From Cystobacterineae bacterium (GTDB lineage Bacteria > Myxococcota > Myxococcia > Myxococcales > Myxococcaceae), in NCBI GenBank assembly GCA_009782175.1, contig WRKR01000037.1, positions 1 through 32,419 on the forward strand: a stretch of DNA of 32,419 bases. Direction: 5' to 3'. A model generated the notes under the pieces. That model did no database searches and was not told where the DNA came from. It saw only the letters and a program-made list of their open reading frames with translations. Shown here piece after piece: positions 17,114 through 32,419 of this stretch (its first letter is position 1; every line of letters begins with the position of its first letter). A program made the translations under genes and the position numbers.

Positions 17114-17820
17114 AGAAACCCTTGGGGCTCTCCTTTTTCAACTCAGCCTTTTTGGGGTTTAGCTTTTTAGGCTGGTCTTTTTTTGCGGGGTCTTTTTTGG
17201 GTGAAGACCGCTTTTAAGTTCCAGACTGGTTTCAATGGAGACAAGCCAAAGTTTGCTTGCACTCCGCTCCATGAAGGAAAAAAGCGCGCTTTTCTTCCCT
17301 CTCTCTCCGCTTGAGACAAGCCAAAGCTCGCCTGCACTCCGCTCCATGAAGGAAGAAAAAACATGCTTTTTCTTCCTTCTCTCTCTCCGCTCCGCTTGGA
17401 CATGAGCTCAATGGGGGCGAGGATTCCGTGAGGGGAGTGCACCCAAGTGCCCTCCCTTCGCGAAACCGGAGCCCAATGAAGAGACCATGTCAAAGTGAAA
17501 CCGGTCTAGTCTTTTTTTAACCTGCTCCTTGGCGAAATGCTTCTCAATTTGAGCATTTCCAACAGAGCTTCCTCTGGGAGTATTGGGTTTCGTATTTCAA
17601 AATGCCTGTGGCCTCGTCGCGGGAGAGGGCCTCAAAACAAAGGGCCCCAACCGGGGCCAAAGCAAGGGGGGCAAAATGCTAATGCAAAGTGCTCCCATGC
17701 TTCCAGCTCTTTTTTATTTGGGTATGTCGTTTTCGTGTCCTTTCTCACAACTTTTAAAACCTCGTGCATTTTTTTGGTGTTTTGCCACACAAAACAGCAC
17801 GCTTGAGTTAAGCAAGAGGT
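17114..17820. other. 707-bp intergenic region with a structured repeat and hairpins
   Basis: No gene is convincing here. The left half holds the repeat at 17221-17509. To the right are a hairpin GAAATGCT/AGCATTTC (17534-17541 with 17552-17559) and GGCCCC-AACC-GGGGCC (17643-17658), neither followed by a T-run. The AT-rich last 120 bases should hold the carboxylase promoter; I cannot place it exactly. Confidence 0.6.
17221..17509. repeat. Structured dispersed repeat, copy 1
   Basis: The right end (17486-17509) is CATGTCAAAGTGAAACCGG plus TCTAG, and its complement matches 32176-32199 at 23 of 24 positions. The left end (17221 on, CCAGACTGGTTTCA) is a decayed inverted copy. Inside, a 75-bp module starting GAGACAAGCCAAAG is repeated at 17238 and 17313. 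Each module ends in an A/T-armed hairpin; the second has a 12-bp stem (17349-17360 with 17367-17378). After it come CTCCGCTCCG and a GTGCACCCAAGTGC near-palindrome, in the same order as in copy 2. No protein is encoded. Confidence 0.75.
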
Positions 17821-30805: not shown

Positions 30806-32179
30806 ATGGACAAAGAGGAAGCGGTGGCAGAGAAGCGGCTTTTTTTGGAGTGCATTGGCGGCATTTCCGGGGACATGTGCCTGGGGGCCCTTCTGGAGTT
30901 GGGCGTAGACTTGGAGGTTTTGCTGGCGCAACTGAAAACCTTGCCCCTTGAGGGGTGGAGCCTGCACCGGGAGACGCAACAGCGCCACCACCTGGTGGGT
31001 ACACGGGTGGTGGTGAAAACCCAGGAAGAAGCCCCCAGGCAAAGCCCTCAGCCCCCAAGCATAGAGGGAGAAGGCACCACCCCCTTTGGCTTGCCCAAGC
31101 AGAAAGAGGCGCACCGCCGCCTTGGGGATATTGAGGAGGTGGTGAAGGCCTCAGGCCTCTCGCCAAAGGCCAAGGAGCTCTCCTTGAGTGTGTTTGGCCT
31201 TTTGGCCAGGGCCGAAGGAAAAATACACGGAATGCTCCCCTCGGAAGTACACTTCCACGAGGTGGGGGCGGTGGACTCCCTCATTGATGTTTGCGGTTTT
31301 GTGGTGGCCTGGGAGTGCCTGGGCTTTCCCAAAATACACTGCACCCCACCCCCCATGGGGCAAGGCAGTATACAAGCGGCCCACGGCGTGTTGCCCGTGC
31401 CGGCGCCGGCGGTGGTGGCCTTGCTGCAAGGCAAACCCGTGCGCTATGAGGGGCAAGGGGAGAGGACAACCCCCACGGGGGCGGCTTTGCTGGTGGCCTT
31501 TGCGGAGTTTTCACCGCCGCCCGAGTGCGCCCTGCTATACACAGGCCATGGCCTGGGGCAGCGCGACACGGCAGATTTGCCCAACCTGCTGCGCGCAAGC
31601 CTTGTGGAGCTGCAAACCCGACAAGCGGCTTTGTGCCAAATAGAAACCAACCTGGATGATGCCTCCCCTGAAATGCTTTCCGCGCTGGCCGACAAGCTGC
31701 GCACCCAGGGGGCCCTGGACGTATGGCAAATACCCTGCGTTATGAAGAAGGGACGCCTGGGCGTATGCCTGGGCTTGCTGTGCGAAGCAAGGCGTGTAGC
31801 GGACATAGAGAAGTTTTTGTTCCGCGAGTCCACAGCCCTGGGCATCCGCCGCTGGCCCATAGCGCGCCAGGTACTCTCCCGCAGGACGGTGCAAACGCAA
31901 ACGGAATATGGCATTATCCGCGTTAAACAAAGCTTTTTGGAAGGCAAGTTTATTCAGGCCAAACCCGAGTTTGACGACTGCCTCATGGCCGCCCAAAAAT
32001 GCAACCTCCCCCTGGCCGTTGTTATGGTAGCCGCCATCAACGCCTGCACCCCCAAGGAAAACCCCTCGCCCAAAAGCACTCCCGCCCCAACCCCCTCTCC
32101 AGAAGCTACGCCCATCCAAAACCCCTGGCCAGGGGGGCCCCGCAAAGCCAAAGCCCCCAAGAGCAAAACCAGAGGCTAG
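30806..32179 (+). CDS. larC: LarC nickel-pincer cofactor cyclometallase
   Basis: A 457-residue protein (DUF111 family) that inserts nickel into the pyridinium bisthiocarboxylate nucleotide, the last step of the cofactor made by LarB, LarE and LarC for lactate racemase and relatives. GGISGDM is at 18-24, HFHEVGAVDS at 149-158 and TTPTGAA at 221-227; IETNLDD opens the second half. Both halves are in one frame; in Lactobacillus plantarum a ribosomal frameshift joins them. The ATG follows GGGGG. From about residue 415 there is a Pro/Lys-rich tail outside the conserved family. Its TAG stop is part of the CTAG that begins the structured repeat. larB and larE are not in the window. Confidence 0.93.
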   Translation: MDKEEAVAEKRLFLECIGGISGDMCLGALLELGVDLEVLLAQLKTLPLEGWSLHRETQQRHHLVGTRVVVKTQEEAPRQSPQPPSIEGEGTTPFGLPKQKEAHRRLGDIEEVVKASGLSPKAKELSLSVFGLLARAEGKIHGMLPSEVHFHEVGAVDSLIDVCGFVVAWECLGFPKIHCTPPPMGQGSIQAAHGVLPVPAPAVVALLQGKPVRYEGQGERTTPTGAALLVAFAEFSPPPECALLYTGHGLGQRDTADLPNLLRASLVELQTRQAALCQIETNLDDASPEMLSALADKLRTQGALDVWQIPCVMKKGRLGVCLGLLCEARRVADIEKFLFRESTALGIRRWPIARQVLSRRTVQTQTEYGIIRVKQSFLEGKFIQAKPEFDDCLMAAQKCNLPLAVVMVAAINACTPKENPSPKSTPAPTPSPEATPIQNPWPGGPRKAKAPKSKTRG

Positions 32180-32419
32180 ACCGGTTCCACTTTGACATGA
32201 TCTCTTCGTGAGACGAGCTAAAGCTCGTCTACTCCACTCCGTGGATGATCTGAAAAAGCTTGCTTTTTCAGATCATCCCCTCCGCTCCGTTGGGACTCGT
32301 TTTTGTTCGGGTCATGCACTTAAGTGCACTCCCTACCACCTCCCTTCCGTCAGCAAGCTCCACCGGAGCTTGCTCCTCACAAAAGCCTCGTCCGCCTCGA
32401 CCTCATGTCAAATTGAAAC
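32176..32419. repeat. Structured dispersed repeat, copy 2 (runs off the window)
   Basis: It begins CTAGACCGGTTCCACTTTGA and ends at the window edge with CATGTCAAATTGAAAC (32404-32419), the inverted form of its start, so only about eight bases are missing. Inside are four hairpins or palindromes in a row: 32211-32218 with 32223-32230; 32244-32259 with 32262-32277 (16 bp, perfect, 2-base loop); TGCACTTAAGTGCA at 32315-32328; and 32352-32361 with 32365-32374. The modules GAGACGAGC, CTCCGCTCCG and AAGTGCACTCCC occur in the same order as in copy 1. No gene is seen. Confidence 0.8.

What the first reader, a model, noticed from the sequence alone, without database searches (positions are those of the whole stretch)
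32176..32419. A structured dispersed repeat family with inverted ends and serial hairpins
The element at 32176 and the one at 17221-17509 share their ends (23 of 24 positions for 32176-32199 against the complement of 17486-17509) and the same internal order: a GAGACRAGC module, an A/T-armed hairpin, CTCCGCTCCG, an AAGTGC half-palindrome, then the inverted end. The hairpin stems differ in sequence while the fold is kept (16 bp here, 12 bp there), which suggests selection on structure. Copy 1 has a 75-bp internal duplication. Neither encodes protein. I know no named family with this build.
Basis: partly seen in the sequence, partly recalled or inferred. Interest (0 to 1): 0.75.

Follow-up and report, generated by a model that had tools for sequence, protein, structure and literature searches.

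The report
Hairpin-module MITE sitting on stop codons
The repeat is one of roughly a hundred copies of a small, non-coding, jumping-DNA family, built from interchangeable hairpin modules, in a reduced-genome termite-gut myxobacterium; many copies sit exactly on gene stop codons and re-make the stop with their own first base, so the gene is left intact.

Summary
Both window copies belong to a genus-specific family of miniature inverted-repeat elements: 181 terminus-like sites in the 2.7-Mb genome (reversed control 3), 50 and 31 in its two congeners, and none confirmed in 144 other genomes of the class. The host is a termite-gut relative of Cystobacterineae.

Elements are flanked by TA, mostly as C-TA-GACC…GGTC-TA-G, and run from 29 bp (ends only) to about 400 bp by adding hairpin modules on either arm in mirror orientation. 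Compensating arm changes are real (6 covarying pairs), but DNA palindrome repair could also produce them. Orthologous sites in relatives lack the window copies.

Orthologous genes mostly stop at the same residue without the element, so insertion preserves the stop codon.

Best reading: a TA-target (IS630/Tc1-mariner-like) MITE, mobilised in trans by a transposase not found here, most like pneumococcal BOX/RUP, where stop-codon overlap is already reported. It is a new family of a known kind. The left-end bias at stops is unexplained and hints at a 3'-UTR role.

The parts
32176..32419 (+). Copy 2 of the element, left end plus body, truncated at the contig end
32176..32199 (+). Left terminal inverted repeat, C-TA-GACCGGTTCCACTTTGACATG
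32177..32179 (+). TAG: the element's terminus and at the same time the stop codon of larC (ORF 30806-32179)
32211..32230 (+). Module M hairpin 1, AGACGAGC-TAAA-GCTCGTCT
32243..32278 (+). Module M hairpin 2, 16-bp A/T-rich arms, flanked by CTCCACTCC and CTCCGCTCC
32291..32333 (+). 5' half of the core arm, with palindrome TGCACTTAAGTGCA at 32315-32328
32334..32375 (+). Optional module b, hairpin GCAAGCTCCACCGGAGCTTGC at 32353-32373
32376..32403 (+). 3' half of the core arm (CTCACAAAAGCCTCGTCCGCCTCGACCT), pairs with 32291-32310
32404..32419 (+). Start of the right inverted repeat CATGTCAAATTGAAAC; the contig ends here
17204..17509 (-). Copy 1, complete element on the minus strand with two tandem right-arm modules
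17486..17509 (-). Left terminal inverted repeat of copy 1, CTAG at 17506-17509
17238..17312 (+). Module M, first tandem copy (75-bp period)
   Evidence: sequence
17313..17397 (+). Module M, second tandem copy
   Evidence: sequence
17204..17237 (-). Double right end of copy 1: outer AAGACCGCTTTTAAGTT and inner CCAGACTGGTTTCAATGG

Best explanation
A non-autonomous transposon family (MITE). SHOWN: ends flanked by TA, target preference C-TA-G, terminal inverted repeats GACCGSTTYCAMTTTGA, dispersed non-orthologous positions, orthologous sites without the element, and bodies built from 0 to about 4 hairpin modules added next to either inverted repeat. SHOWN: in about a third of copies the left-end TAG coincides with a stop codon at the native end of an upstream gene. 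INFERRED: an IS630/Tc1-mariner-like transposase acting in trans cut and pasted the elements into TA; because the element starts with G, insertion into the TA of a TAA or TAG stop codon regenerates TAG, so such insertions are nearly harmless and persist. CTAG is rare inside genes (1 per 4.8 kb against 1 per 1.0 kb between genes), so its use as a target also steers insertions to gene ends. INFERRED: modules arose by nested insertion and recombination between elements; transcripts carry them as folded 3' UTRs.
For: Copies: 70 end hits against 0 control; 181/31/50 CTAGACCGSTTYMA sites against 3/3/2 control in the three congeners, below control in five other genomes. Range: 3 of 147 genomes of the class, all one genus. 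TA at 54 of 63 left and 22 of 26 right ends; base before the left TA is C in 54 of 63, base after the right TA is G in 19 of 26 but also A or T while the left G never changes with it, which favours a 2-bp TA duplication over a 4-bp one. Empty orthologous sites: window copies; clpX stop codon empty in G002, 34-bp mini-element in G001, full element in G000; HAD-family gene likewise. Stop codons: 23 of 63 left ends, 6 of 11 in G002. No truncation: orthologous ClpX, NadA, FabI, YbeY and L106-gene proteins end at the same residue. Only 12 of 54 CTAG sites outside gene interiors lie at stops, against 16 of 34 complete elements (binomial p 0.001). Near-identity across species, 124 of 125 bp between G002 L074 and a G000 copy, where window genes are about 73-87% identical, fits recent movement.
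Against: No transposase was found that uses these ends: no IS630 DDE_3 domain in G000 or G002, only a decayed fragment in G001 without inverted repeats nearby, and IS630s of the family have other ends. One paralogous site (C9) shows the element in place of about 105 bp rather than a clean insertion. The clpX mini-element leaves TATAG, one TA more than a simple duplication. The strong left-end bias at stop codons (13 against 1 discordant among complete elements, p 0.002) is not predicted by a symmetric, purely neutral insertion model.
Confidence: 0.82

Rival explanations
1. The elements are host-domesticated 3'-UTR structures (mRNA stabilisers, RNase substrates, or insulators between convergent genes), kept by selection at gene ends in one orientation.
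For: Left end at stop codons 23 of 63 against right end 3 of 34; convergent gene pairs are frequent neighbours, and one 56-bp copy has both ends as the stop codons of two convergent genes; different members occupy the same orthologous stop codon in two species (fabI, rsfS); compensating stem changes.
Against: Many copies are not at stops; occupancy is not conserved at most orthologous gene ends; no terminator-like site lies within the elements; no expression data. Near-palindromic elements should fold much alike in either orientation.
Confidence: 0.22
2. REP/REPIN-type repeats moved by a RAYT (Y1 transposase).
For: Serial hairpins, many copies, intergenic.
Against: No Y1_Tnp domain in any of the three genomes; true terminal inverted repeats with TA flanks; length up to about 400 bp.
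Confidence: 0.03
3. Independent structured RNA genes or riboswitch-like elements under selection, not mobile DNA.
For: Strong fold and covariation.
Against: No Rfam match; positions differ between species; TA-flanked inverted ends; ends-only forms of 29-58 bp exist.
Confidence: 0.04

Closest known systems
BOX elements of Streptococcus pneumoniae (PMC3049150)
   Same: MITE-like, terminal inverted repeats, variable number of internal modules (67-637 bp), fold into stem-loops, enriched between convergent genes, and 36 copies encode the stop codon at a gene's extreme 3' end without evidence of truncation.
   Different: No sequence relation tested or evident; here the extra modules are hairpins mirrored on both arms; the exact stop-codon TAG is the element terminus, with a strong left-end bias; different phylum.
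RUP (repeat unit of pneumococcus; PMC2229807)
   Same: About 107 bp, inverted repeats, TA target, proposed to be moved in trans by an IS630-family transposase.
   Different: RUP shares ends with IS630-Spn1 in its own genome; no such partner was found here. RUP is not modular.
ERIC and Correia/NEMIS elements (PMC2229807, PMC10969869)
   Same: About 100-150 bp palindromic MITEs with optional internal segments, often co-transcribed at gene 3' ends, affecting mRNA through RNase E or RNase III.
   Different: Unrelated ends and hosts; RNase processing not testable here.
IS630 / Tc1-mariner transposons (ISY100, PMC2170065)
   Same: Insertion into TA with TA duplication; 24-30 bp of each end are thought sufficient in cis, so 29-58 bp ends-only elements would be plausible. 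The CTAG preference of IS630 is from my own knowledge (Tenzen and Ohtsubo 1991).
   Different: No coding copy with these ends was found in the three genomes.

Membership tests
MITE (bacterial miniature inverted-repeat element) | Short, non-coding, terminal inverted repeats, many dispersed copies | tested here: met
MITE (bacterial miniature inverted-repeat element) | Presence/absence at orthologous sites | tested here: met
MITE (bacterial miniature inverted-repeat element) | Identified autonomous partner with the same ends | tested here: not met
   No DDE_3 in G000/G002, fragment in G001; not required for all named MITEs
IS630/Tc1-mariner-derived MITE (RUP-like) | TA target duplication | tested here: inconclusive
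   TA at both ends in most copies, but filled/empty pairs are not perfectly clean
IS630/Tc1-mariner-derived MITE (RUP-like) | Ends match an IS630-family element | tested here: not met
   (30 IS630 loci of the family examined)
BOX | Modular body with variable module number between fixed ends | tested here: met
BOX | boxA/boxB/boxC sequences | not tested
   Not aligned to BOX; similarity is of organisation only, so not filed as BOX
REP/REPIN | RAYT (Y1) transposase in the genome | tested here: not met
Rfam RNA families | Match above gathering score | tested here: not met
   window

The most novel reading that the evidence does not exclude
A stop-codon-targeting MITE family whose orientation at gene ends is selected or imposed: the left end, which regenerates TAG, is placed on stop codons and the hairpin modules serve as exchangeable 3'-UTR devices, with members replacing one another at the same stop codons across species.
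Probability: 0.22. Interest if true: 0.72.

Novelty: new member of a known kind. Interest (0 to 1): 0.5.

Why it matters
It gives a clear sequence-level example of how a mobile element can become nearly harmless: its end restores the stop codon it lands on, and its preferred target CTAG is rare inside genes. It supplies a second, unrelated case of the stop-codon overlap noted for pneumococcal BOX, with orthologous empty sites and a measurable orientation bias, so the parasite-or-3'-UTR-function question for modular repeats becomes testable. It also shows a repeat expansion in a reduced myxobacterial genome (2.7 Mb, against 3.9-13.8 Mb in the non-congener genomes of its family that were sampled), and near-identical copies in species whose genes differ by about 20%.

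Tried and rejected
IS630 partner search: none with matching ends; the decayed G001 fragment L168 has no such ends nearby. RAYT: none. Rfam: none. Intrinsic-terminator function: no terminator-like site inside either element. Autonomous long copies: 20 further end sites fetched; no transposase-bearing pair was evident, though only end spacing was inspected and ORFs there were not annotated. Spread outside the genus: BLAST in 147 class genomes and the pattern in 84,980 species gave only the genus, apart from a Zixibacteria hit whose sequence looks like chance inside a coding region. Viral contigs: 0. Weak hits in order-level relatives (E 0.0002-0.009) are 20-27-bp coding matches. A 4-bp CTAG duplication (IS701-like) was considered and rejected because the base after the right-hand TA varies while the left G does not. 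A paralogous empty site in a multicopy locus turned out to be a replacement of about 105 bp, not a clean insertion.

Full report
WHAT WAS CHECKED. The two window copies exist as described. The window is the whole of contig C37 of a 2.70-Mb, 65-contig genome; the 32176 copy is cut by the contig end inside its right inverted repeat. The genome's two congeners are MAGs labelled Cystobacterineae bacterium Emb289P3bin65 and Proteobacteria bacterium Co191P4bin16. That these come from termite guts (Embiratermes, Coptotermes) is my own knowledge of that MAG series, not a tool result. Other sampled genomes of the same family are 3.9-13.8 Mb.

FAMILY. The 17-mer end is found 70 times with at most 1 mismatch, 0 in the reversed control; the shorter end CTAGACCGSTTYMA 181 times against 3. 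With most elements having two ends, this is roughly a hundred elements; I did not make an exact count. Congeners have 50 and 31 such sites; five other genomes of the family have fewer than their control. BLAST of the core found it in 3 of 147 genomes of the class, all one genus. No Rfam family matches.

ANATOMY. Left end C-TA-GACCGSTTYCACTTTGACATG; right end CATGYCAAATTGAAACCGGTC, in the window genome usually followed by a second outer end ...CTAAGTAAAAGCGGTC-TA-G. Minimal core forms are about 125 bp between the inner ends; 70-81-bp forms carry one hairpin; 29-58-bp forms are little more than the two ends. Longer forms add module M (hairpin 1, CTCCRCTCC, hairpin 2, CTCCGCTCC) next to the left repeat, its reverse complement next to the right repeat, and module b in the core.

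FOLD AND COVARIATION. The elements fold far better than shuffles (z -5 to -8). On 18 distinct core sequences of three species, 6 of 40 pairs change on both sides; the covariation score is 0.099 against 0.053 in shuffles and at most 0.051 in slid controls. Hairpin 2 of module M occurs with clearly different arm sequences that stay complementary. It does not prove selection: most double changes are shared within subfamilies, and template-switch repair of DNA palindromes can produce the same pattern.

INSERTION SITE. Of 63 left ends, 54 follow TA and 54 have C before it; of 26 scored right ends, 22 are followed by TA, then G in 19, A or T in the rest. The left G belongs to the element. This pattern suits a TA duplication with CTAG preference, as in IS630/Tc1-mariner elements (PMC2170065 for TA). 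The orthologous intergenic region of copy 1 and the larC 3' flank of copy 2 lack the element in both congeners. At the clpX stop codon G002 is empty, G001 has a 34-bp mini-element and G000 a full element; a HAD-family gene shows the same three states. The junctions are not perfectly clean (an extra TA in G001 clpX), so the TA duplication is strongly suggested rather than proven.

STOP CODONS. In 23 of 63 left ends the TAG of C-TAG-ACC is the in-frame stop of an upstream open frame of at least 100 codons with coding composition; right ends 3 of 34 (Fisher p 0.004). larC in the window is one of them. In G002 it is 6 of 11 left ends. Orthologues of ClpX, NadA, FabI, YbeY and the L106 gene end at the same residue with a stop of their own, so the elements did not truncate these genes; one tested gene (L153) does end 40 codons earlier than its orthologue. 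Among CTAG sites outside elements and outside gene interiors, 12 of 54 are stop codons, against 16 of 34 complete elements. CTAG is about five times rarer per base inside genes than between them. Gene calls are my own composition-based calls, not a curated annotation.

MECHANISM. The simplest model: a transposase of the TA-target class inserts the element into TA. When that TA belongs to a TAA or TAG stop codon, the element's first base G gives TAG, the protein is unchanged, and the insertion survives. The left-end bias (13 against 1 discordant complete elements, p 0.002) is not explained by this and may reflect selection on the transcribed strand or an orientation preference of insertion. At fabI and rsfS, G002 carries a different member at the same stop codon: either repeated insertion at a favoured site, or an old insertion whose interior was exchanged.

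MOVEMENT BETWEEN SPECIES. A G002 copy and a G000 copy agree at 124 of 125 bp, while the alignable window genes are 73-87% identical between the species. Recent transfer between species, or unusually strong constraint, is needed; I cannot separate them.

MISSING PIECE. No transposase with matching ends was found. The draft assemblies break at these repeats, so an autonomous copy could be hidden.

COMPARISON. Organisation and position are closest to pneumococcal BOX: modular, inverted ends, between convergent genes, and 36 copies encoding a stop codon at a gene's 3' end without evident truncation (PMC3049150). TA target and IS630 link resemble RUP (PMC2229807). Hence a new family of a known kind. 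The paper library holds only open-licence papers, so an earlier description elsewhere cannot be excluded.

Noticed in passing
L228-L247 (G000 contigs C4, C9, C14, C17, C23, C30, C46, C49): A separate multicopy locus with about ten copies: a small membrane-protein-like frame next to what looks like an ArsR-type regulator; in three copies the MITE replaces the 5' end of the small frame.
   Followed up: partly
G002:C1:2063-2248, G002:C3:101706-101891: A second element of about 185 bp with related ends (CTAGACCGATTCAA), apparently another MITE subfamily in G002.
   Followed up: no
L087, L103, L250, L254 (G001): Another dispersed repeat in G001, GGGCCTGCGGCCCGGGCC...TTTTTTGAAA...CGCCCTCCGGGCG, near gene ends.
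   Followed up: no
L168 (G001:C219:17826-17921): Decayed IS630-type transposase fragment (DN..HK..LPPYSPDL) in a congener otherwise without DDE_3 hits.
   Followed up: partly
L093 near 2818 (G002): An element broken exactly within its central palindrome (ATGCAC) and followed by unrelated sequence; a rearrangement or an assembly chimera.
   Followed up: no
window 32050-32179: LarC has a proline-rich C-terminal extension in this species that is absent in both congeners and ends at the element's TAG.
   Followed up: partly
L273:2829-3014 (C43) and L090 near 1860: Elements with the same ends but a different internal body (CGGCCCTCCCTTCGG...CGGCCGAAGGAGG), a further subfamily shared by G000 and G001.
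   Followed up: no
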